The translations under genes were made by a program, and so were the position numbers. The notes beneath the pieces are model-generated. The model made no database searches. It was not told the DNA's origin and saw nothing but the letters and a program-made list of their open reading frames with translations. Positions 32,280-44,280 of a stretch of 61,195 nucleotides of DNA are shown piece by piece; positions within the stretch are counted from its first letter, which is position 1; every line of letters begins with the position of its first letter. The stretch is from an uncultured Bacteroidota bacterium (GTDB taxonomy: Bacteria; Bacteroidota; Bacteroidia; Flavobacteriales; Flavobacteriaceae): the NCBI GenBank assembly GCA_902574335.1, contig CACGNO010000002.1, forward strand, positions 1 through 61,195, given 5' to 3'.

Positions 32280-34175
32280 TTATTTATTTGAAAATCCATG
32301 AATTTTAAGTTCAGAGGCAAAAAACTCATAAATCATTACCATAGCTAGTGTATCTAGTTCACAATATTTCAGTAAAGATTCCTTAATGATTTTTCGTTCC
32401 TGAGAGGACATTTCAAGATATTGTATTTTGGCATACGCTGTTAAAGCATCCCCTCCGTTATTCAATTTATTTATATCGCCTACAGGTTTGGTAATTGTAG
32501 AAAAATCTGGAATTGGCAACGAACTATATGGGTCTAAATTTCCATCTTGAATCCATATATGGTCATTTGAAAAGTTTAAAGATGTCGTATTAATTTCCCC
32601 AATTTTTTTTGAATATTTTTTATTTACAAATTCACAAATTTTTATTACCGCGGGCAGAACAACTTTTATTGAATTTGATCCTTTCATGTACGAATCATAA
32701 AAATATTTTTTTACTAAATCACACATGTCAATCATGTCTCTCTCTCCCCTCCAAATAAGTTTATTATTTTCTTTTTTATTAGTTACAGATTGAATAAAAT
32801 CCATTAATTCATTTTTATCTATTTCATCTGAATCTATTAACTGATCATAGATTGCATTTAAAATAGAATTTTCATGAGTAGCGTATTTAAAGACTGAACC
32901 ATTATCAAATTCTAAATCATTTTTTAATGATCTAACAAAATCATAATTTGGAAACTTACCAGGTTCTGCATTAATATATTCAGATTTGTGCTCAATTTTA
33001 CCATCGGAGTATATAATGTGATGGGAGTACTGAAATGCTATTTGCTCATAGGGATGTCTTCCCTTTGTAAATGGTAATGCTGATGTACATGTTTCAAAAT
33101 CAATAAAATGTAAAGGAAATTTCCATTCCAACATTTCGTTTCTTAAATTATCAACATCTAAATAAAAGTTTACGGGTTTATTTAAACTTTCATTCACTCT
33201 TTTTTCAATTTGTAGCAATTGTCTATTTTTTATACTTAAATGAGTTTCTAAAGGTTCATCAAAATCTGATTTTTGGAGTTGATCTAAAAAAAATATATTT
33301 GATTTAAATAATGGTTTTTGATTTCTAAATTGCCACAGTTCATAAATATTTGGTCGTAACTTATCCTCATCACTAATATTAAATTGTTCCATCCAGCACT
33401 CTCTGCATACGTGCCCATTGTAGTCTTTCCAATTTATTTGTTTTTGGTTTGTATATAATTCAGTGAAATTTTCAATAAGACCCTTAAATGATAAGCCATG
33501 GATTTTATGAATGTCTTTTGATATAATATCATTGATTAATCCGCTAAGATTTCTTGGTTCCATGATTGGATTTCCAATATCTTCGATTGATTCAACTTTT
33601 ACATCAATTCCAGTTCTACTATTAGGGTTTTTAGTGATTTGGAAAAGTTGATTTAAGCCATCTATACTTGCTCTTTTTGATTTATCAGCTAGCATTAAAT
33701 ATGACTGTATGCTGTACTCAGGATAACTTTTTTGGACAACATATTTTTGAAAAGCTAAATCAAATAAATACAACCTCCACTCAGGACGAATTCTTCCAGA
33801 ATTATTTATAAAAACATTATTCATTGTTGAATCAAATGATTTTGCTTTAACCTCAATCACTTTAATTACATTACCAGTTTTCACTAAAATATCTGTTCGT
33901 ACAAAAAGATTTTCATGTAAAAAGGCTGCTTCATAAATTATGGAATCTGGCTTCTTTAATAAATCATTTGTATTTTTTAATGAATTAGCATAATCACGAT
34001 CATCAATTAAATAACCAGGTCTGTAATGAAGTCTAGATAATTCCTCAGCCTGAAAACCTCCATCGGCTAAGGCTGATAAAAATTCATTTTTCTCATCTGA
34101 AGATTTATAATTAACGGTCAGCTTAAGCGGACATTCGAGACCTTTTTTAAATAAGGTTTTTGTTAAATATTTCAA
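32280..34175 (-). CDS. DUF2779 protein: Cas4-like nuclease plus DnaQ-like domain
   Basis: A 631-residue protein. The N-terminal part has a Cas4/RecB-type PD-(D/E)XK core: D95 in FVRTDILVKTG and E108-V-K110 in KVIEVKAKS. A cysteine at position 15 and a VCREC pair near residue 258 could hold an iron-sulfur cluster as in Cas4. The C-terminal part is DUF2779, with an exonuclease-like motif HFIDFETCTSALPF near residue 365 and YCELDTLAM near the end, which fits a DEDD-type fold. Such proteins are usually found in variable or defence-related regions. Function is unproven; DNA or RNA processing is the inference. Confidence 0.8.
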   Translation of the reverse strand: MKYLTKTLFKKGLECPLKLTVNYKSSDEKNEFLSALADGGFQAEELSRLHYRPGYLIDDRDYANSLKNTNDLLKKPDSIIYEAAFLHENLFVRTDILVKTGNVIKVIEVKAKSFDSTMNNVFINNSGRIRPEWRLYLFDLAFQKYVVQKSYPEYSIQSYLMLADKSKRASIDGLNQLFQITKNPNSRTGIDVKVESIEDIGNPIMEPRNLSGLINDIISKDIHKIHGLSFKGLIENFTELYTNQKQINWKDYNGHVCRECWMEQFNISDEDKLRPNIYELWQFRNQKPLFKSNIFFLDQLQKSDFDEPLETHLSIKNRQLLQIEKRVNESLNKPVNFYLDVDNLRNEMLEWKFPLHFIDFETCTSALPFTKGRHPYEQIAFQYSHHIIYSDGKIEHKSEYINAEPGKFPNYDFVRSLKNDLEFDNGSVFKYATHENSILNAIYDQLIDSDEIDKNELMDFIQSVTNKKENNKLIWRGERDMIDMCDLVKKYFYDSYMKGSNSIKVVLPAVIKICEFVNKKYSKKIGEINTTSLNFSNDHIWIQDGNLDPYSSLPIPDFSTITKPVGDINKLNNGGDALTAYAKIQYLEMSSQERKIIKESLLKYCELDTLAMVMIYEFFASELKIHGFSNK

Positions 34176-34232
34176 ATCATATTATTTAAAGATTGGAAAA
34201 TTAAATATATTCATTTGAAATATAAATATAAA

Positions 34233-34685
34233 ATGAAGAGAGTATATATTGACCTAGACGGTGTATTGGCAGATTTTGAAAAAGGCAGAAAAAATCACCC
34301 ATTAGGAAATCAAACACCTTACAAAGGAAGACCAGACAGACTGCCAGGATTATTTAAAGATTTAGAACCAATTAAAGGTTCAATAGGTGCAGTAAATAAA
34401 TTGCTTAATAATCCTAATTTTGATGTTTACTTCCTTTCAACTGCTCCATGGGATAATCCTGATGCATGGACTCATAAAAGACTTTGGATTGCAAATCATT
34501 TTGATGAAAAATTGATCAGAAAAAGATTGATCTTATGTCACCATAAAAATTTTTTAAAAGGAGATTTTCTGATTGATGATAGAAAATGGAATGGAGCACA
34601 AGATTTTGAGGGTGAGTGGATAGAGTTTGGAGGTCAGCAATTTCCAGACTGGGAGTCAGTAATGAATAGGTTGGAATCTTTCTGA
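34233..34685 (+). CDS. 5'(3')-deoxyribonucleotidase-like HAD protein
   Basis: A HAD protein of about 150 residues from ATG 34233; an alternative ATG at 34215 adds six lysine-rich residues. Motif I is VYIDLDGVLADFE, motif II lies in YFLSTAPWDNPDAW, and the terminal motif is FLIDDRKWNGAQDF. This matches the NT5C family, which removes phosphate from (deoxy)nucleoside monophosphates and is common in phages. It diverges from DUF2779 across 57 bases. A nucleotide-salvage or nucleotide-depletion role is possible. Confidence 0.82.
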   Translation: MKRVYIDLDGVLADFEKGRKNHPLGNQTPYKGRPDRLPGLFKDLEPIKGSIGAVNKLLNNPNFDVYFLSTAPWDNPDAWTHKRLWIANHFDEKLIRKRLILCHHKNFLKGDFLIDDRKWNGAQDFEGEWIEFGGQQFPDWESVMNRLESF

Positions 34686-34763
34686 TTTTATCTTTTGAAT
34701 GTTAATTTCTAAACGCAGATAATGAAATTTGGTATATTGTAAATTAAAAAAAAATTATTAACA

Positions 34764-35720
34764 GTGAATGGCATAAAAGAAGTGTTAACAGAAATTTGTG
34801 AGGAAATTATTGAGCTAAATAATAAGCCCTTTGAAGACGATCAAGTAATTAGCAATCATATATTTGATGAAAAAGGTGTTCAAATCAAAATGGGTTGGAG
34901 TTTGATTAAAAAACTTGGATTGGATGATCAAAAACGGAAAGTGCTTAATCTACAATTTGAAAAAAAAATCATTAATAAAGAACTTGCTAAAAATGATTAT
35001 TTAGATATTTTTTTATTTCATAAGGGTAAAAAAATTGGCATTGAATTAAAATTTAAAACGAAAGGGATTCATATCACAAAAAAGCCAAAAGCAACTCAAG
35101 AAAGAAAAGAAAAGTTTAAATATCATTTTTCAAATCAGGGAGCCGAAACAAATGGACATCATAGTTTTTTTTGGGATTTACACAGATTAAATAAATTTAT
35201 AGGCAATGAAGAGATTGATTTGGGATATCAAATCTTTATAACAAACGATTCAAGCTATTGGAAAAAGAAAAAAAAGGGGAATGCTAAAGGATATATTATA
35301 GTGAACCAAAATGGTAAGGCTGAAATCTCAGGAACTGAAACTAAAAACAATTCTCACATTTTTGAAATGAGTCATGAGACCCCTTTCCCATCAGATAAAA
35401 AAATGGATGCGCCAAATTGGTTAAGTGTTGATAGTATAAAGGGACAGAAAGTGGGTCGTAATAAACTTGTGAAAAATTTAGAGAAAAAGAAAAAGGAGCA
35501 AAAATTTCTTTATTGTCAAAATCCAATTGACCTTGAACATATTGTTGATGACAAAATCGAATGGTTACCCCAAAAAATTGAACACCTTGGTAAAGAGCAG
35601 GATAATCCCGCGAGGAGTAAAACAGAGAAAAGTAAAACATTCAATTTAGTAGCTGATGATGATCAACAGGCAATCACTAAATTTGCTTTTGTTATAGTAG
35701 AATTAGAAAAAAAGTCTTAA
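34764..35720 (+). CDS. Hypothetical protein with PD-(D/E)XK nuclease-like motif
   Basis: A 318-residue soluble, lysine-rich protein starting at GTG 34764; the ATG at 34768 is out of frame. I do not recognise the family, but DYLDIFLFHKGKKIGIELKFKTKG (D81, E94, K96) has the spacing of a PD-(D/E)XK nuclease active site, and a Glu at position 15 may complete it. The region after residue 215 is charged and possibly flexible. Restriction-endonuclease-like enzymes often look like this. Neighbours are nucleotidase- and nuclease-like. No methyltransferase is present, so an ordinary restriction-modification system is unlikely. Confidence 0.65.
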   Translation: MNGIKEVLTEICEEIIELNNKPFEDDQVISNHIFDEKGVQIKMGWSLIKKLGLDDQKRKVLNLQFEKKIINKELAKNDYLDIFLFHKGKKIGIELKFKTKGIHITKKPKATQERKEKFKYHFSNQGAETNGHHSFFWDLHRLNKFIGNEEIDLGYQIFITNDSSYWKKKKKGNAKGYIIVNQNGKAEISGTETKNNSHIFEMSHETPFPSDKKMDAPNWLSVDSIKGQKVGRNKLVKNLEKKKKEQKFLYCQNPIDLEHIVDDKIEWLPQKIEHLGKEQDNPARSKTEKSKTFNLVADDDQQAITKFAFVIVELEKKS

Positions 35721-35778
35721 TCTTTATAGGCTACCAATTCAACCCCTACTAATCCACAACTAATTAGTTTTAATGTTT

Positions 35779-35943
35779 TTACGTGTTTTTATTTCTTAAA
35801 TGAATAATTATTCCTCCTATGATATCATAATCTTTTAAATGAAAAGATTTGGATACTTGACCGCTTTCAATTAATTCCTTACCAGTTACTAAATTTTTTG
35901 GATTGTTCCTAATAATCTTATTAGATTTCTTCTTTTTTGACAT
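35779..35943 (-). CDS. Small basic protein, 54 residues
   Basis: A short frame from ATG 35943 to TAA 35779-35781. The product starts MSKKKKSNKIIRNN, continues with KNLVTGKELIESGQVSKSF and ends in a hydrophobic strand DIIGGIIIHLRNKNT. It begins five bases after the stop of the 92-residue gene on the same strand, the usual spacing inside this operon, and the sequence looks like a natural protein rather than random frame. Family unknown. The poly-lysine start suggests nucleic-acid or membrane-surface contact. Confidence 0.5.
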   Translation of the reverse strand: MSKKKKSNKIIRNNPKNLVTGKELIESGQVSKSFHLKDYDIIGGIIIHLRNKNT

Positions 35944-35948
35944 TAAAA

Positions 35949-36227
35949 TTATCTTTTCAAAAGAACATCAGCATTACCTATAACAGTAGATAAATTTTCA
36001 CCAAATTCTTTTTGGGCTTTTGCCATATCTTTCTCAAATTCTTTTTGAAGTTTTGCCATGTTATCCATTGATCTTCTTAACTTACTTTGATCACTAGATT
36101 TAAATTTATATGCGTGTCCCTTACTTGATTTTAGATTTGATTTTTTAGCTATATCACCATAGGTTGTTTTAATAGCTCTTCCACCACCTGGGCATGGAAT
36201 TTCTGTTTTTTCTCTGTATAAATCCAT
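35949..36227 (-). CDS. Small hypothetical protein, 92 residues
   Basis: Unrecognised. The first half has EIPCPGGGRAIKTTYGDIAKKSN and a basic stretch; the second half is a charged amphipathic helix (MAKLQKEFEKDMAKAQKEFGENL) that could be a coiled coil. It follows the channel-like gene by 63 bases on the same strand and precedes the 54-residue gene by five. One cysteine sits in a CPGGG turn. It may be an accessory or binding partner of the channel protein, which is inference from position. Confidence 0.6.
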   Translation of the reverse strand: MDLYREKTEIPCPGGGRAIKTTYGDIAKKSNLKSSKGHAYKFKSSDQSKLRRSMDNMAKLQKEFEKDMAKAQKEFGENLSTVIGNADVLLKR

Positions 36228-36290
36228 TTTAATTTAATTTAAAAATTCAAATAACAATTTAAAAAAAAAATATTTGTTATAAAAGATTAA

Positions 36291-38384
36291 CTAGTCTTCA
36301 CTTCCATCTAAATTTATCCTTGATTTAAAAGAATTTCTTCTATAATACAAATAGAATATACTCCCGATAGTTAATAAAAGTAATACTAGTCTTGAGTAGG
36401 CTAATCCTGTGATGTAGTAATCCTGAAAAAAGTCAAATACAAAAACAGAAACTGATGCAAGCCCAACTATTAAATAAAATATGATGAATATATAATCAAC
36501 GATTGTCAGAGTTAGTGGGTTGGGTCTTTCTGTAGAAAAATACAATGCTATACCCGACAAAAAAGATGTCGTTAATAAAGCGATAACTCTATCAATTTGT
36601 TCAGATGGAAGATACATTCCGTAAACAACCAATGCAATTAAAAAAAGTAATGGAATTAAAATCTTTATAACTGTAAATGAACTTTTTCTAGACATGATAT
36701 ATGAAATTCTATTTTCTTCTGAAATTAGTACATAGCTGTCTTTAAAATGAGGATGATAATTTTCTTTTTTCCTAATAACTCCCGATCTTACAGATGATAT
36801 ATTCCATCCATGTGAATTAAACTTTCTATCAATATCTTGATTTTTAATGCCATCAAGAATTCCATATTTTTGGTCATCAATAATAGAGTAAGAAATAAAA
36901 ATATTCTGGATGTCAAATGGATAACTTTCAGCTCTTGAAAAGAAATAAAATTCCGCAGAAATATAATACCTAAAATAAAAATAATCATTTTCTATTTTTT
37001 CTGATTTAATCAATTTTATTTCAGAATCATTATCAATAATATTATTAAATCTTATTATATCAATTCCTGATTTGTGTTTTGTTGTTAATTCAAAATAAAA
37101 ATTTGATTTAAAAGTATTGTCTTCAATTGAAATATCCTTTATATCAATGAAATCAAAATTAGGATAGCTTACGTCAACTATTTTCTTTTCATCTTTTTTA
37201 GTTATTAACTGCCTTTCAAATAAAGACATTTTAAGATTTTTTTCTGCTGAATTTTTTATTTCTACCAAATAATTTGTTGCAAGTGGTCTAGATTGATTTT
37301 TGAAATAAATTAAGTCACCTGAACCTGCAAAAACATCTTTGGAACCATCCAATTTGGAGAGTCTTTTTTTCGTTTCACTTAAGAAGTTTTCATTACATAT
37401 ATCTGCACTATTTTTACTATACAAATAGTGTATAAGTAAAACTTTGTCAATAACAATTTGAAAATACCAGTTTAAATAATCATTTATGTTTTTCTGAATA
37501 CCAGAATTTACAGAGAAGATTCTATCTTGCAAAGCAAGTTTCTCAACAAAATCATCTGGCATTAGATTAAGTATTTTGTTATTAAATCTATTATCAATTT
37601 TATTAAGAGAATTGTGAATTAATCTTGTATCAAGTCTTAAACCAACCAAAGTCAAATCGTACTTGTTTTCTAAAAAAACAGATAAAAACTCTGATCTTGA
37701 ATTATTATAAGTAGCCTTAGAATCTGGTTGATCTGAGGACTTATTAAGCTGAAAAGGGGTAATGTAACCATTTAGAAGAGCAATCTCGTCTTTTTTAGCA
37801 GAAGAGAAAAAATCTTTTAGATTATAATAGTTATTATCTTTCCATTTATTGATAAACCTTAAATATATCCCATTATTTTTTGCGAATAAATCAAGTGCTT
37901 CTAATTCACTTTTTGGAACTGATGTTTTATTTTTCTCCAAACAAATTGGAAATATAATTTTTGCATTGGGATAGATTTTCCTTATTTGTGTTACTGCATC
38001 ATCACTCCCAAATGTAAGTCGTGTTCGAAAAATATTTTCGTGATTATAATCTTTAAAAACATTAAAACTATCAAAATAAATAGCATCACTCAAAAATTGA
38101 GACCAATCATCAGTCTTAAAATAATTTGGTGCTTGACAAACAACGTTGATATTATTTTTAGTTACAAATTTTTTATAATGTTCAATGGATGCAGTTTTAT
38201 TGTCAACAACATCATAGAAGATTTTAAATTTGATGTTATTTTTTTTTAGAAGAGAGTTAATTTCTTTTTCTAAAGAAAAAGTAATTTTTTTTATGTGCTT
38301 TGATATAATTGATTGCTGTTTATTCCCAGCCCAACCCTCTAGAATTTGATAAAACGTGTAAAAATTAATTTGAAATTTGCTCAT
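36291..38384 (-). CDS. Pentameric ligand-gated ion channel homologue fused to type I periplasmic-binding domain
   Basis: A 697-residue protein. Residues about 10-385 look like a type I periplasmic-binding (LivJ-like) domain: KFKIFYDVVDNKTASIEHYK, NINVVCQAPN, and near its end DVFAGSGDLIYFKNQSRP, which matches the usual closing strand of that fold. Residues about 410-565 form the channel's ligand-binding domain with the Pro-loop signature YPFDIQN at 488-494. Four helices follow: M1 571-591 (with the ILIP kink), M2 597-617, M3 626-650 and M4 663-681, aligning by eye with GLIC. No signal peptide is visible and no upstream start exists before a stop. Basic residues crowd before M1 and after M4, which suggests both ends face the cytoplasm, opposite to known channels. 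Confidence 0.75.
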   Translation of the reverse strand: MSKFQINFYTFYQILEGWAGNKQQSIISKHIKKITFSLEKEINSLLKKNNIKFKIFYDVVDNKTASIEHYKKFVTKNNINVVCQAPNYFKTDDWSQFLSDAIYFDSFNVFKDYNHENIFRTRLTFGSDDAVTQIRKIYPNAKIIFPICLEKNKTSVPKSELEALDLFAKNNGIYLRFINKWKDNNYYNLKDFFSSAKKDEIALLNGYITPFQLNKSSDQPDSKATYNNSRSEFLSVFLENKYDLTLVGLRLDTRLIHNSLNKIDNRFNNKILNLMPDDFVEKLALQDRIFSVNSGIQKNINDYLNWYFQIVIDKVLLIHYLYSKNSADICNENFLSETKKRLSKLDGSKDVFAGSGDLIYFKNQSRPLATNYLVEIKNSAEKNLKMSLFERQLITKKDEKKIVDVSYPNFDFIDIKDISIEDNTFKSNFYFELTTKHKSGIDIIRFNNIIDNDSEIKLIKSEKIENDYFYFRYYISAEFYFFSRAESYPFDIQNIFISYSIIDDQKYGILDGIKNQDIDRKFNSHGWNISSVRSGVIRKKENYHPHFKDSYVLISEENRISYIMSRKSSFTVIKILIPLLFLIALVVYGMYLPSEQIDRVIALLTTSFLSGIALYFSTERPNPLTLTIVDYIFIIFYLIVGLASVSVFVFDFFQDYYITGLAYSRLVLLLLTIGSIFYLYYRRNSFKSRINLDGSED

Positions 38385-38405
38385 ATTAAATAAATCTAAA
38401 AATAG

Positions 38406-38900
38406 TTAAATCTGTATTTTATCAAGTTTTATTTTGTGATTTATATGACTTTCACTATTTGTTAGTTTATAACAACAAAGAGTGTGTTTGTAATGTATAG
38501 CTTTCAATGATTTTAATGTTGGATTTTTTTCAGCAATTAAACGATCAACTAGGGAGTTAACTCCGCCACTTAAATGTTCAATTTGAATTCTATCTGAAAT
38601 TCCTTTCATTTTAAGTTCTTTGTTAATTCGTATTCTATCAATAGTTTTTAAATATGTCTCATGGTAAATATTTTCTTTATCTAACAAAGCTCTTAATCTT
38701 TTTGTTGAAATAAATTTTGAATATCCATCAATTTGTCTAATCATATGTCTATAACCATATTTGTTTACAAAATCATTTTGCTTGTGATTTTTTAATCCTC
38801 CCAAAATTGTTTTCCATGTACTTAGAATATTTCTTTTATTAAGATTAGAGATTGAATCTGTGTTAGCTCTAAACAAATTGGAAACTTTATTTTCTTTCAT
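38406..38900 (-). CDS. Hypothetical basic protein, 164 residues
   Basis: I do not recognise it. The protein is soluble, basic and mainly helical, with ILSTWKTILGGLKNHKQNDFV, a RIRINKELKMKG helix and a C-terminal CCYKL pair. No signal or membrane segment is seen. It starts four bases after the ATPase stop and ends 21 bases before the channel start, so it is translated between the two large membrane proteins. An adaptor or DNA/RNA-binding role is possible but not supported by a motif. Confidence 0.6.
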   Translation of the reverse strand: MKENKVSNLFRANTDSISNLNKRNILSTWKTILGGLKNHKQNDFVNKYGYRHMIRQIDGYSKFISTKRLRALLDKENIYHETYLKTIDRIRINKELKMKGISDRIQIEHLSGGVNSLVDRLIAEKNPTLKSLKAIHYKHTLCCYKLTNSESHINHKIKLDKIQI

Positions 38901-38904
38901 TTAG

Positions 38905-41900
38905 TCACTTAATTAATTTCTTTGCTTGCTCAATTAAATCAATTTCCGTTTTGCGAAATTTTTTATCCAATTTTTCTAAGTTCTTTATTGAATCCTTAAT
39001 AAGTTTTGAACCGTTAGATGATTTATTGTAAACTAAATTAATTCCTTTTTCAAGTTGACTCAAATTATAAATTTTGGGGAAAATGTAAAAATAGTTTGAA
39101 GCTTTATCAATCATTTTAATTGCCTCATTATATTTCTTTTGCATTGATAAACATTTTGCATAATTTAAGATACTTTGCCCATAGCCTACAATAGTAAGTC
39201 TTTCTCTTCCTGATTTTGTGTAAAATAATTCTTTAGTATCTTTTGAAAGTGGAATAAGCTCACCATCAATAAAATCCCACTTTTTTGGTGCTTTGTACTC
39301 AAAGTTTTTTTTGTGGAAATCCAATGCTTTAAAGTTATAGTTTAAGGCATTTTTTAATGAGTTTTTCTTTAAATATAAACTAGATAATTTTTGATAACGT
39401 TGTGCCAATTGAGAATAGGTAACCCCCGAGGTTGATCTTAATAATTGTTTTGTTTTATTATCAAATTCCTCTAAATCTTTATTTTGAGATAAAAAATAAT
39501 TAAGGGCTTTTTTCCAAATAACTATACAATCGTTAAAAAAATTAGGACAATTTGGTGAGTATTCTGTGTGCCACTCTAAATCATTAGCAATATTAACACA
39601 TGCTTTATCAAACTCATTAGATTCTTCACTAAAATCTATTTTTAATCTATTTAAATAATCTAGTTGTAAATCTTTATAAACTGTAAAGTCCTTTTTCAAA
39701 AGGTAATGTAATTTTTCTGCGTCTATAAACCACATGGAAGCTTTATTAACTGAGCCTTTATCTAAAATTTTAGCTAAGAATTTTTTTGCGTCATCAAAGT
39801 TTTGTTGGGCAATTTCGGGGTTTTGCTCAATATACAGCTTACCAGGTCTAACTGTACCGAAATCAAAATTATAATATGTTTTTTTTGTTGATCCTTTACA
39901 TGTACTTAGAATAAACTTTATGAAAGTTAACACCCAAGCTTCATTAATTTTACCATCAATTTTCAAACTTTGATTATATAGTTGGAAAACTTCAGTTGAT
40001 TTTTTACCATCTTTATAATTTGAATGACAATAACTCAAATAACTATTAATACAATCATATAAGAACTTTGGAGTTTGATTTTTTAAACTTTCAATTAATG
40101 ATTTGTATTTATTAGAAATTTCATCAATTTTTTCTTTAGACTCACCAACATTTCTGGAAGCTTTTTCAATTTCCCATAATTTTTGTTCCCTTACAGCTAA
40201 TTTGTGAAATTTAGTAGATTGTAGTTGCTCAACAGCGGATTCAAACATTACTTTTTGACCTTGTTCGATTTCCTTTTGTCTTTTTTCATATTCACCTGAA
40301 ATAATCATTTCAACTTCATCATCAAGATCCAAATTTATATTGCCAAGATATTTAATAAAATATATTAGAGATAGACCATTTAACTTGGTTGGAAATTTAT
40401 TAAATGTGGAAATGAAACTTTTAAAATTTTCATGTTTAAATCCAATAGTAGTAGTAGTAACAATGGATTCTGCATACATATTCATAATATCTCCATTTAA
40501 GATAATCAGTAGCCTTAAATCATTTGATAATTGATCAGGATTAATTCCAACTGGTAAAGGGATTTTAGACTTTCTATTTTCTTCTTCAGCTAATTCGTCC
40601 AATATTTTTTGCTTTTCAGCAAATGAAAAATTGACATCATCAGCAATTATTCTCAATTTTTTAACTAAATCTGCAAGCTCATTATAATTTTTCTTTTCAA
40701 GTAAATTTGCAAAAGCATCTAGTTTTCCTAATTTTTTAAAGTATAAATATCTACATACAACATCTAAAATAAGTTTATTGCAATTATTTCTGTAATATTC
40801 TATTGAGCTGAGTGTAAGCATTCTCCTTATAACTTTTAGTAGATTTTCAGTATCGTGTTTTTCAGGATTTTTAATTATATCTAATTGCAATTCCAGGTAT
40901 CTTTTATTGTACTCTATAACTATTTGTTTTTCTCCCTCATCCTCTATAGAGGCATCTTTAAAATACGATTTAAGTGCGCTAACTATTCTTCTATCTTTAA
41001 ACTCATAGAAATTATCTTGACTAGATACATCAATTAAAAGGTCATTATTTACAGCCTTTTCTAAAAAATCTAATACATCCAAAAGTTTATACCCCCAAAC
41101 CTGTGCAAGAATATCTGCATCAAATTTATTTCCTATAACAGAAGCACTTTCAAGAATTCTCCTCCACTTAGGGTCGAATGTATCAAAAATGGAATGATAA
41201 TAGCTATCAATATCCTCATCTGGTGGAAGTGATTCTATATCTACTGTTTTAGTTAAAAGATATCCATCAGGTGAATATTTCAATGAACCATCGGATATCC
41301 AGGATTCTAAAACTTTAAAAACATATAAAGGAGTTAATTTTGCATTTTCACTTTCAGATTTTAACTGTTCATTGTATTCATTAAATAAAGTATTGATTTG
41401 ATTCATAGAACTGCTTGCAATTCTAAATTCATTGTTTTCAATACTTAAGTTTTTTACAAAGTCAACAAGTTTAAATGAATTGATATCCAACAAATCATCT
41501 AACTCAAAAGGATTAGTAGTTTTATCATCTAAATTAACTAGTTCATTTTTAAGTTCTTCATAGTTTAAACCTCTATATGGCGGTTTAATATCTGCACGAA
41601 CTGTTATTACGATACACAAATTTTTTCTTAGGAAGATATTTCTATTTACAGTTTTGATAAAATGTTTAAGTAATGTAAGAGTTTCGGGATCAATCCAGTG
41701 AATATCCTCCATAACGAATAAAACTTTTTTATTAGTACTTGTAAGTTTATCCATTATCTCAAGTGAAATTTCATTCATGGTTTTTTTAGAGCTACTACTA
41801 TATTCAGATATTCCCAATGGTATTCCAACTCTGTCACTGGCAGCATCCATTAAACCTTTTGTAAGTTTATCTGTTGTTTCTGATCTACTATTCCAATTAT

Positions 41901-43725
41901 CACCTAATATTTCACTAAAAGCTTCTAAAAAGGGTTCAAATGATATTGCAGTTTCATCTTGAATCTCGTCACAATCTCCATAATAAACCGTCCAGCCATT
42001 TTCTTCAGTAAAATGATGTTTTCTAGCTTCATTCAAACTTCTGGTTTTTCCCATACCCATAGGAGCATTAATTAGCATTATATCTAAATTATCATCAGAC
42101 ATTTGATTTTCTATAGCTTCATAAATTAATTTGCCAGGATTCATTACACTTTTAACATATTTAACTTTATCAAGAATTAGAGTTTCTTTAGAATCCTTGG
42201 ATTTTTTTTCAAATAATCTGGCAGAATAGTTATCCAATATTTGATTTAATATTGATATTGGAGCAATTATTGTAAAACTTAGTAAGAGATTTTGAATTGA
42301 AAGTTCATAAATTATAATTCTATTAAAAATTATTAGAGCTATTAGACCAAGAACTAGTCCTGTAACTGCTTGCCTTCTCTTATAGTTGTTTTTAGTTACA
42401 AAACCATATTGGAAGTACGATTTACCTAGAAGATTACCAATCAAAAGGGTAATAAATATCAACAGAACATTAATTAAAAATGGATATGTTTCATACTGAA
42501 TAAAATAGAAAATGAAAATTGGAAAATAGGTAGCATATAAACATGAATTCGCAAAAAAAGTATAACCCAGCGTAGTATGAAAACCATCAATATCTAATCT
42601 ATTAACAACAAATAAGTTTAAAATTATAGGTAAAAAACTCATTAAAAATGTTAGAGATAAAATCCACACCAAAACGTTTATTTCACCAACATCCACATCG
42701 CCTTTTGGTATTATAAATGAACACAAATAGATCATTACAAACGACAAAATTATTGGCAAGAAAAAATATAAGGCTACGTATTTGACTTTATTTAAAATAG
42801 AGATAAAGAACTCTTTATTTAAATCGTTTGAGGAAATTAGAATATTTTTTCTATTGATAAAAATTAAAGAAAAACTGTAAGCTAGTGAGACAAAAATTAT
42901 TGCTAAAATTAATACGAGTATTATTTCCAAAAACAATGATAGATTTCTTTTATCGACTGTGTATCCTTTAGTAAATATAGATTCAATGAAACCTTGGGAC
43001 TCATTATATGTTTTAAAATCAGTCTTAACCAGCCAAATTTTATTATCTATTATATCGATGTTTCCAATAGAAAAAATACCAAGTTTATCAAGTTTCAGAT
43101 TGTTAATTATAGTTTTTACATCATCTTCTAGAAGTTGCCCATTTATTAATTTATTAGATTTTTCAAATCCTAGAACTTCAATTAATTCATTTTCTTGTAG
43201 TATGCGGTGGTTACTATTTGAAATTAAAGATTGATTTATAATCTCAAAAGTTGCATCATCACAATCTTCTCTTATTAAAATGGACGTAATTCCTGCCTCT
43301 GAAAGAGGAATATTTCCAAGAACACGATATTTAAGATTTAATAGTTCTGTTAATGCATCATCATATGCATACTCAATAGCATCATCAACAAATCCATAAT
43401 ATGAGGGTACACCTGAATAAAACTCAAAAAATTCTATTTTACTGATTACGTTATTATCAATTGTATTTTTTGTTAATAATATAGTTTCTTCAATTTCACT
43501 CGCATAATTATTATCATCTTGAATCAGTAATATCGAATCCACATATTTTAATGCTAAGTCCAAAAAAAACTCAGTATTATAATTTTGTCTAGAAATATAT
43601 TGTAATGTGTTTATATGGTTTTTATACTTTTCTATTTGCACTGAATCTTGAACAGAAACTATTTTGTCATTGGAAAATAGATTCAACGAGAAAAGCAATA
43701 AAAAAAAACTTAAATAATATTTCAA
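38905..43725 (-). CDS. Membrane-bound STAND/AAA ATPase with CsgG/FlgO-like periplasmic domain
   Basis: A 1606-residue protein. A signal peptide (residues 1-18) is followed by a periplasmic region; around residues 120-250 the pattern NHRILQENELIEVL ... LKLDKLGIFSIGNIDI resembles CsgG/FlgO/LpoB-type domains. Several helices fill about 265-500. A STAND-type ATPase follows: Walker A NAPMGMGKTRSL near residue 560 and Walker B VLFVMEDIHWIDPETL near 670, with a winged-helix-like region at about 855-960. The rest (about 1000-1606) is helical, with TPR-like pairs such as LALNYNFKALDFHKKN-type segments. It heads the operon with the 164-residue protein and the channel homologue. The likely role is ATP-gated signalling across the inner membrane; the trigger is unknown. 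Confidence 0.75.
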   Translation of the reverse strand: MKYYLSFFLLLFSLNLFSNDKIVSVQDSVQIEKYKNHINTLQYISRQNYNTEFFLDLALKYVDSILLIQDDNNYASEIEETILLTKNTIDNNVISKIEFFEFYSGVPSYYGFVDDAIEYAYDDALTELLNLKYRVLGNIPLSEAGITSILIREDCDDATFEIINQSLISNSNHRILQENELIEVLGFEKSNKLINGQLLEDDVKTIINNLKLDKLGIFSIGNIDIIDNKIWLVKTDFKTYNESQGFIESIFTKGYTVDKRNLSLFLEIILVLILAIIFVSLAYSFSLIFINRKNILISSNDLNKEFFISILNKVKYVALYFFLPIILSFVMIYLCSFIIPKGDVDVGEINVLVWILSLTFLMSFLPIILNLFVVNRLDIDGFHTTLGYTFFANSCLYATYFPIFIFYFIQYETYPFLINVLLIFITLLIGNLLGKSYFQYGFVTKNNYKRRQAVTGLVLGLIALIIFNRIIIYELSIQNLLLSFTIIAPISILNQILDNYSARLFEKKSKDSKETLILDKVKYVKSVMNPGKLIYEAIENQMSDDNLDIMLINAPMGMGKTRSLNEARKHHFTEENGWTVYYGDCDEIQDETAISFEPFLEAFSEILGDNWNSRSETTDKLTKGLMDAASDRVGIPLGISEYSSSSKKTMNEISLEIMDKLTSTNKKVLFVMEDIHWIDPETLTLLKHFIKTVNRNIFLRKNLCIVITVRADIKPPYRGLNYEELKNELVNLDDKTTNPFELDDLLDINSFKLVDFVKNLSIENNEFRIASSSMNQINTLFNEYNEQLKSESENAKLTPLYVFKVLESWISDGSLKYSPDGYLLTKTVDIESLPPDEDIDSYYHSIFDTFDPKWRRILESASVIGNKFDADILAQVWGYKLLDVLDFLEKAVNNDLLIDVSSQDNFYEFKDRRIVSALKSYFKDASIEDEGEKQIVIEYNKRYLELQLDIIKNPEKHDTENLLKVIRRMLTLSSIEYYRNNCNKLILDVVCRYLYFKKLGKLDAFANLLEKKNYNELADLVKKLRIIADDVNFSFAEKQKILDELAEEENRKSKIPLPVGINPDQLSNDLRLLIILNGDIMNMYAESIVTTTTIGFKHENFKSFISTFNKFPTKLNGLSLIYFIKYLGNINLDLDDEVEMIISGEYEKRQKEIEQGQKVMFESAVEQLQSTKFHKLAVREQKLWEIEKASRNVGESKEKIDEISNKYKSLIESLKNQTPKFLYDCINSYLSYCHSNYKDGKKSTEVFQLYNQSLKIDGKINEAWVLTFIKFILSTCKGSTKKTYYNFDFGTVRPGKLYIEQNPEIAQQNFDDAKKFLAKILDKGSVNKASMWFIDAEKLHYLLKKDFTVYKDLQLDYLNRLKIDFSEESNEFDKACVNIANDLEWHTEYSPNCPNFFNDCIVIWKKALNYFLSQNKDLEEFDNKTKQLLRSTSGVTYSQLAQRYQKLSSLYLKKNSLKNALNYNFKALDFHKKNFEYKAPKKWDFIDGELIPLSKDTKELFYTKSGRERLTIVGYGQSILNYAKCLSMQKKYNEAIKMIDKASNYFYIFPKIYNLSQLEKGINLVYNKSSNGSKLIKDSIKNLEKLDKKFRKTEIDLIEQAKKLIK

Positions 43726-43794
43726 AATCTTAGCGTTGTATTACTAAATTTAAAATAATTATTAGAAATTAGAATATAAACTCAACTAAAAACT

Positions 43795-44280
43795 ATGTCA
43801 TTTGAGAATTTTTTTCATTGTGTAAAGAATGGAATAAAAAGAAAAATTAAGTCAAGAAGACTTAAAATGGAGGTTTCTATTAATGAATTTGGTGCATTTT
43901 CAAATAAGTATTTTAAAAAAATAAATGATAAAGATTTGTCATTTAAATTTGTTGTTGATGAGATTGATAAAAATAGTATTTTATTTGTTTTGAGGTCCTT
44001 TTTTAATATGTATGTTGAGGTTAAGGAAAACTCTATTATTGTTTTTAAAAATTTTCCTAAAAAATTTATATTAATAAAAGAGGTAAATAAATCAAATCAT
44101 CACTTTACGCCTAGGACTTTTAAAAAAGGAACAATCATGTATTCAATTTCACCGTCTTACTCCTCAGCTAATCGAATGAATGGTGTACCACTTTGGGATA
44201 GTTTAGAGACTATTGAAGAGACAGAGCTCATACCAAGTGTTCAAATAAATTATGATTACATTAATCCATATATTTATTAG
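43795..44280 (+). CDS. Hypothetical protein, 161 residues
   Basis: Unrecognised. The frame starts at ATG 43795 with a basic leader (KNGIKRKIKSRRLKMEV); an internal ATG at 43867 is an alternative start. The middle has alternating strands (LSFKFVVDEIDKNSILFVL, YVEVKENSIIVFKNFP) and the end is hydrophilic with YDYINPYIY. It is one of two plus-strand genes between the two big minus-strand operons and diverges from the ATPase gene across 69 bases. No cysteine or membrane feature of note. Confidence 0.55.
   Translation: MSFENFFHCVKNGIKRKIKSRRLKMEVSINEFGAFSNKYFKKINDKDLSFKFVVDEIDKNSILFVLRSFFNMYVEVKENSIIVFKNFPKKFILIKEVNKSNHHFTPRTFKKGTIMYSISPSYSSANRMNGVPLWDSLETIEETELIPSVQINYDYINPYIY

What the first reader, a model, noticed from the sequence alone, without database searches (positions are those of the whole stretch)
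36291..38384. Venus-flytrap/pentameric channel fusion with apparent inverted topology
The sequence shows a type I periplasmic-binding-like domain, a Pro-loop ligand-binding domain (YPFD at 488) and four helices that align by eye with GLIC. Related prokaryotic fusions are known from surveys, but known channels need a signal peptide and place both ends outside. Here no signal peptide is visible, no earlier start exists, and basic residues concentrate before M1 and after M4 while the M1-M2 and M3-M4 loops have almost none. The positive-inside rule then predicts a cytoplasmic sensor. A channel gated by an internal ligand would be new.
Basis: partly seen in the sequence, partly recalled or inferred. 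Interest (0 to 1): 0.87.

Follow-up and report, generated by a model that had tools for sequence, protein, structure and literature searches.

The report
Ion channel that may face inward
A bacterium carries a relative of nerve-receptor ion channels that lacks the export signal seen at the front of the relatives compared with it, so its large sensor probably sits inside the cell and would open the pore in response to an internal rather than an external signal.

Summary
Window 36291-38384 (minus strand) encodes an intact 697-aa protein. Residues ~400-697 are a divergent pentameric ligand-gated ion channel (pLGIC): all 39 PDB sequence hits up to E=1 are pLGICs, marker residues and pore are present, and Foldseek ranks GLIC first from a poor model. 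There is no signal peptide, no earlier start, and no membrane segment before M1, whereas 32 of 32 control channels with an intact 5' end (33 collected) have a hydrophobic leader. Classical-inside minus classical-outside K+R is -6 here and +1 to +6 in the 33 controls. This predicts a cytoplasmic sensor (inverted topology). Caveats: the charge pattern alone is not significant against random placement (P = 0.16), and no second copy of this architecture was found. The gene is third in a tight run behind a 1606-aa AAA_16 (STAND-like) membrane protein, at a site whose cargo differs between related genomes. Verdict: credible new variant, unproven.

The parts
36291..38384 (-). 697-aa predicted ion channel with N-terminal domain, no signal peptide (P0001)
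   Evidence: ORF; codon usage; 39 of 39 PDB hits up to E=1 are pLGICs
37200..38384 (-). residues 1-395: soluble N-terminal domain with alternating helix/strand pattern, family unidentified
   Evidence: No Pfam/PDB/profile match; weak models with helix/strand alternation, mean pLDDT 44.5 and 35.4; no membrane segment
36681..37187 (-). residues 400-568: pLGIC ligand-binding-domain-like region ending at the pre-M1 arginine (R566)
   Evidence: Alignment with L042-L048 and with 9 other channels
36912..36923 (-). YPFD Pro-loop motif, residues 488-491
   Evidence: P489, D491 nearly invariant; motif as in Table 1 of PMC4795631
36621..36677 (-). M1 (about residues 570-588), with conserved P578
36531..36587 (-). 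M2 pore helix (about 600-618); D598 just before it (invariant in 8 rows) sits where GLIC has its -2' acid; T606 (6'), L609 (9'), A613 (13') are invariant in the 8 rows
   Evidence: prime numbering assigned by me from GLIC numbering, recalled
36435..36491 (-). M3 (about 632-650)
36348..36404 (-). M4 (about 661-679)
36294..36341 (-). C-terminal tail, residues 682-697, 4 K/R (33 controls: 0-1)
38406..38900 (-). 164-aa ORF, no family; 21 bp before the channel gene and 4 bp after the preceding gene
   Evidence: no match in the 22 other genomes of the genus
38905..43725 (-). 1606-aa protein: N-terminal hydrophobic leader (by eye), five to seven membrane-compatible segments between 264 and 493, AAA_16 ATPase (541-705, E 5e-12), sub-threshold nSTAND and TPR signals
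   Evidence: homologues at 74-77% in 3 of 22 other genus genomes

Best explanation
It is a divergent bacterial pLGIC that has lost the export signal and gained a large N-terminal domain, so that its soluble domains and its C-terminus lie in the cytoplasm and the four-helix pore is inserted upside down relative to described members. Shown by computation: pLGIC homology, marker residues, an intact pore sequence, four and only four membrane-compatible segments, no signal peptide or leading helix, and a K+R distribution opposite to 33 relatives. Inferred: the inverted insertion itself, assembly as a pentamer, cation selectivity (acidic D598 at the -2' ring), and gating by a cytoplasmic ligand or partner acting on the N-terminal or pLGIC domain, which opens the pore and changes membrane potential or ion balance. 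Close spacing behind the membrane STAND-like ATPase suggests co-transcription and perhaps one pathway; this is a guess from gene spacing.
For: 39 of 39 PDB hits up to E=1 are pLGICs, best 0.016. Relatives L002 (9e-7) and L003 (2e-4) by tblastn in 395 genomes, and 7 relatives at E 3e-5 to 1e-9 from a pattern-limited scan of the 84,980-species collection. Marker residues of PMC4795631 Table 1: YPFD 488-491, W527, R566, P578, P621 or P623. Foldseek top hit GLIC, E 2.7e-10. Signal-peptide peak 0.42 against 2.28-3.12 in six closest complete homologues. 32 of 32 controls with an intact 5' end have a strong hydrophobic peak N-terminal to the ligand domain: 11-residue mean 2.28-3.71 against 1.95 in P0001, 15-residue mean 1.64-3.11 against 1.30; P0001's own peak is a D/K-containing stretch near 304 that scores +10.1 for insertion. 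K+R difference -6 against +1 to +6 in 33 controls; M3-M4 loop 1 against 3-7; C-tail 4 against 0-1.
Against: Singleton: no orthologue of the full architecture in the other 22 genus genomes (themselves 55-87% complete), in 296 order or 395 phylum genomes by tblastn, in 397 family genomes by HMM, nor in viral contigs or plasmids; the samples overlap. It comes from a 56.6%-complete metagenome-like bin. The charge pattern by itself is not unusual against random placement of its ten loop K/R (P=0.16); the controls are individually no stronger (0.056-0.645). Controls include near relatives of one another. Mean pLDDT 44.5. The relatives all follow the ordinary N-out plan.
Confidence: 0.6

Rival explanations
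1. A degenerating or mis-assembled copy: the gene lost its signal peptide by mutation or assembly error and is no longer exported or functional.
For: Singleton in a 56.6%-complete bin, in one of 23 genus genomes and at a variable site.
Against: Full-length open frame with in-frame codon usage in all four parts. Conserved residues and pore intact. No signal-like segment in any frame within 240 nt upstream. Loop charges changed as well, which a simple loss of the leader does not explain.
Confidence: 0.18
2. Ordinary N-out topology reached without a signal peptide: M1 acts as a reverse signal anchor and about 565 residues are translocated.
For: All 32 controls with an intact 5' end carry an export leader, so N-out is the family norm; pLGIC residues and pore are conserved.
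Against: Very long leaderless N-tail (14% K+R over residues 1-560); from general knowledge (recalled, no call) bacterial N-tail translocation without a signal is limited to short, weakly charged tails. Loop charges oppose it.
Confidence: 0.15
3. A hidden transmembrane helix near residue 304 anchors the chain, leaving residues 1-300 inside and the pLGIC ligand domain outside in the usual way.
For: The most hydrophobic stretch before M1 is here, 15-residue mean 1.30. Cache-like fused relatives L038-L041 use leading helices.
Against: 19-residue mean 0.92; D and K in its middle; insertion sum +10.1 against -2.8 to +1.4 for M1-M4.
Confidence: 0.05

Closest known systems
Signal-peptide pLGICs of about 340-350 aa (L042, L043, L045-L048; L003)
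   Same: Ligand-binding-domain-like region plus M1-M4, 24-31% identity; in L042-L048 the same residues at 6', 9', 13'
   Different: Signal peptide, no N-terminal extra domain, 5-6 K/R in the M3-M4 loop, no C-tail
PBP-I/pLGIC fusions of Magnetospirillum and Bradyrhizobium (Tasneem et al., PMC549065; passages seen)
   Same: A large extra N-terminal domain in front of a pLGIC
   Different: That paper places extra domains after a signal peptide; here there is none, and PBP-I identity got no support. Their sequences were not compared here
DeCLIC (PMC12664993; passages seen)
   Same: N-terminal domain accounting for roughly half the protein
   Different: Its N-terminal domain is periplasmic; [quoted passage not shown] Not compared by sequence here
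Cache-like fused pLGICs of the same phylum (L038-L041, frames of 721-740 aa)
   Same: Sensor fusion of similar total length
   Different: Leading membrane helices, basic M3-M4 loop (3-5 K/R); sub-threshold dCache match in 3 of 3 tested

Membership tests
pLGIC / Pro-loop receptor superfamily | [F/Y]PxD Pro-loop motif (Table 1, PMC4795631) | tested here: met
   YPFD at 488-491
pLGIC / Pro-loop receptor superfamily | beta9 aromatic, pre-M1 Arg, M1 Pro, M2-M3 Pro | tested here: met
   W527, R566, P578, P621 or P623
pLGIC / Pro-loop receptor superfamily | Sequence homology over ligand-binding and channel domains | tested here: met
   7 loci at E 3e-5 to 1e-9; alignment from LBD to M4. Pfam models do not reach P0001; one relative, L042, reaches Neur_chan_memb at 27.9 bits against a cut-off of 28.1
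pLGIC / Pro-loop receptor superfamily | Four C-terminal membrane helices | tested here: met
   Exactly four candidate segments
pLGIC / Pro-loop receptor superfamily | pLGIC fold | tested here: inconclusive
   GLIC is top Foldseek hit, E 2.7e-10, but model pLDDT 44.5
pLGIC / Pro-loop receptor superfamily | Pentameric assembly and ligand-gated ion flow | not testable with these tools
   Needs protein work
pLGIC with usual N-out topology | Signal peptide or leading helix that exports the ligand domain (shared by members in PMC549065 and by the controls here; not what defines the superfamily by descent) | tested here: not met
pLGIC with usual N-out topology | Basic M3-M4 loop | tested here: not met
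   1 K/R against 3-7 in 33 controls
Type I periplasmic-binding protein (Peripla_BP_6) | Profile match of residues 1-400 | tested here: not met
   hhalign score 13.9; 23 of 40 shuffles of itself score as high (mean 14.7, max 23.6); 29 other window proteins have median 16.0; 4 of 4 left-out true members score 188-386
Type I periplasmic-binding protein (Peripla_BP_6) | Two-lobed alpha/beta fold | tested here: inconclusive
   Alternating secondary structure only; model pLDDT 35.4, no Foldseek hit at E<=0.001, though AMPA receptor chains, which contain such a domain, appear among the weak hits
Known anti-phage defence proteins | PADLOC model match for channel or neighbours | tested here: not met
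   0 of 6 proteins

The most novel reading that the evidence does not exclude
A pLGIC with truly inverted topology whose cytoplasmic sensor opens the pore in response to an internal signal, working as the membrane-depolarising output of a STAND-type ATPase in a variable, immunity-like locus.
Probability: 0.15. Interest if true: 0.92.

Novelty: new variant of a known kind. Interest (0 to 1): 0.7.

Why it matters
To general knowledge, pLGICs from bacteria to human synapses carry their ligand-binding domain outside the cytoplasm. A member inserted the other way round would be gated from inside the cell, would test whether the fold tolerates inversion and how topology flips in evolution, and would give a natural sensor-channel for intracellular ligands. 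The claim is directly testable with topology reporters on one gene.

Tried and rejected
Type I periplasmic-binding identity for residues 1-395: Pfam, PDB phmmer and a Peripla_BP_6 profile with shuffles, window proteins and left-out positives; no support. The first version of that test was flawed: one of its 25 profile rows (L068) was a wrong-strand frame and the query itself was among the 30 window proteins; one search repeats it with 24 rows and 29 window proteins, same outcome, and only its numbers are used. Structure prediction of the whole protein and of residues 1-409: too poor beyond the pLGIC match. The idea that the relatives have a separate sensor gene beside the channel that was fused here: 18 neighbouring ORFs of L042-L048 do not match residues 1-400 (best blastp E 0.94). 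PADLOC gave nothing and PHROGs no usable lead; a PHROG hit to residues 164-218 (E 0.0015) and a Pfam SRPRB hit (E 0.01, under its cut-off) I treat as chance. Hits L004 (TPR/CHAT-like), L005 (80-aa two-helix frame), L007 and L008 (ABC ATPase frames) and L009-L011 were read and judged not to be channels. Viral contigs (P0001, A4) and plasmids (P0001): nothing; tblastn of plasmids with two relatives found 3 records with partial distant matches, not followed. Rows left out of the 33 controls: L014 (self), L021 and L023 (cut), L022 (cut, same place as L006), and 9 of the 39 matches that came without a locus. L044 (5' incomplete) counts for charges, not for leaders. L088 and L089, found later in the same family, are outside the 33: L089 has a leader by eye; L088's leader needs the GTG start upstream of its first ATG, so a leaderless reading from that ATG cannot be excluded. 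Both have the ordinary charge pattern, 3 K/R in the M3-M4 loop and none in the C-tail.

Full report
The object. Window 36291-38384, minus strand, is an open frame of 697 codons starting with ATG. Upstream in frame there are seven sense codons and then TAA; the 164-aa ORF before it ends 21 bp upstream, and the other two frames in the 240 nt upstream hold many stops and no signal-like stretch. Codon usage is in frame in all four parts of the protein (0.14-0.29 bits per codon in frame, negative in the other two frames). The window is contig C2 of a 921,769-base, 52-contig genome estimated at 56.6% complete.

What it is. Pfam gives only two matches under their cut-offs and NCBIfam none. In the PDB, 39 of 39 sequences up to E=1 are pLGICs, best E 0.016. 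tblastn at E<=0.01 rang in 6 of 395 genomes of the phylum: self, two channels (L002 at 9e-7, L003 at 2e-4), the channel fragment L006 (0.0048), and two non-channels, L004 and L005. An HMM of L003, L002, L006 and the window protein rang in 31 of 395 phylum genomes, own genome included, with 39 matches. A scan of the 84,980-species collection, limited to contigs that match one of two peptide patterns, gave 7 relatives, L042-L048, at E 3e-5 to 1e-9 out of 308 pattern matches. Alignment shows the residues that Jaiteh et al. list as most conserved (PMC4795631; abstract and section 7 read): YPFD at 488, W527, R566, P578 and P621 or P623. D598, T606, L609 and A613 are invariant in the 8 rows; by GLIC numbering (recalled) they would be -2', 6', 9' and 13'. 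Foldseek puts GLIC first, E 2.7e-10, from a poor model (pLDDT 44.5), so this supports and does not prove the fold.

No export signal. The best 11-residue hydrophobicity in the first 45 residues is 0.42 (0.91 with the upstream codons) against 2.28-3.12 in the six closest complete relatives. Of 33 control channels, one (L044) lacks its 5' end; all 32 others have a strong hydrophobic peak N-terminal to the ligand domain, on reading a signal peptide or, in four Cache-like fusions, leading membrane helices. Two later family members also appear to have leaders, though that of L088 needs a GTG start. On an insertion scale entered from memory, only M1-M4 score between -2.8 and +1.4; the next best segment anywhere scores +10.1. 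Tasneem et al. (PMC549065, passages seen) report an amino-terminal signal peptide in all bacterial members they found, extra domains lying between it and the ligand domain. [quoted passage not shown]

Charges. K+R in the loops that are cytoplasmic in ordinary pLGICs minus K+R in those outside is -6 here and +1 to +6 in 33 controls. The M3-M4 loop has 1 against 3-7 and the C-tail 4 against 0-1. Two limits: random placement of this protein's ten loop K/R would put so few inside with P 0.16, and single controls reach only 0.056-0.645 in the other direction; and the controls include near relatives of one another. The charge shift therefore corroborates the missing signal and would not carry the claim alone. 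It does argue against a simple recent loss of the leader.

The N-terminal domain. By eye the layout is suggestive, but the test failed. Proteins of 25 of the 30 loci returned by a Peripla_BP_6 search of 118 phylum genomes were made into a profile; one row turned out to be a wrong-strand frame and was dropped, leaving 24. The domain scores 13.9; 23 of 40 shuffles of itself score as high (mean 14.7, max 23.6), 29 other window proteins have median 16.0, and four of four left-out true members score 188-386. phmmer against the PDB gives only weak hits, mostly antibody chains (best E 0.15). The family is unknown; an orphan sequence limits all these tests, and the weak Foldseek list does contain AMPA receptor chains, so the label is unsupported rather than excluded.

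Surroundings. Upstream in the same direction lie the 164-aa ORF and a 1606-aa protein with a hydrophobic leader (by eye), five to seven membrane-compatible segments between 264 and 493, an AAA_16 ATPase domain and sub-threshold nSTAND and TPR signals; the gaps are 21 and 4 bp. The large protein is found in 3 of the 22 other genomes of the genus (one cut by a contig end), the 164-aa ORF and the channel in none of the 22; those genomes are 55-87% complete. In G839 the large gene is followed after 9 bp by a 1402-aa TPR protein instead, and in G834 by four small genes on the other strand with no match in the window, while outer flank genes keep 82-98% identity. So the channel is cargo at a variable site behind a recurring STAND-like gene. 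That is the kind of place where defence genes are often found (general knowledge), but no PADLOC model matches, and I do not claim defence.

Mechanism. Best reading: the chain is inserted with N- and C-termini inside; an internal ligand or partner acting on the N-terminal or pLGIC domain opens a cation-type pore and alters membrane potential. Shown: anatomy, homology, leader absence, charges. Inferred: orientation, pentamer, selectivity, ligand. Confidence in inverted topology 0.6. Rivals: broken or mis-assembled gene (0.18), leaderless N-tail export (0.15), hidden helix near 304 (0.05).

Literature. Ten full-text searches, seen as listings apart from the three papers named above, showed no report of an inverted pLGIC; the library lacks most subscription papers and preprints, so this is weak evidence of novelty.

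Noticed in passing
window 34175-43795; L055; L056: Variable site: flank genes and the 1606-aa STAND-like gene recur in two related genomes, but the genes between them differ (channel plus 164-aa ORF, a 1402-aa TPR protein, or four small opposite-strand genes).
   Followed up: partly
window 38905-43725: 1606-aa protein with a hydrophobic N-terminal leader, membrane segments and an AAA_16/STAND-like ATPase, unmatched by PADLOC.
   Followed up: partly
L038-L041: 721-740 aa pLGIC frames with leading membrane helices and a Cache-like sensor (dCache match under the cut-off in 3 of 3 tested); another fusion design that keeps the usual topology.
   Followed up: partly
L088:1159-2469: A same-family pLGIC with an extra N-terminal stretch that looks TPR-like by eye (no Pfam match); its leader needs a GTG start.
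   Followed up: partly
L045:6654-7766, L047:6714-7775, L048:3908-4966: Three of the closest channel relatives are followed at once by a multi-pass HGSNAT_cat/Acyl_transf_3 protein (3 of 3 tested); a similar-looking protein lies beside the channels of L043 and L046 by eye. A possible conserved pair.
   Followed up: partly
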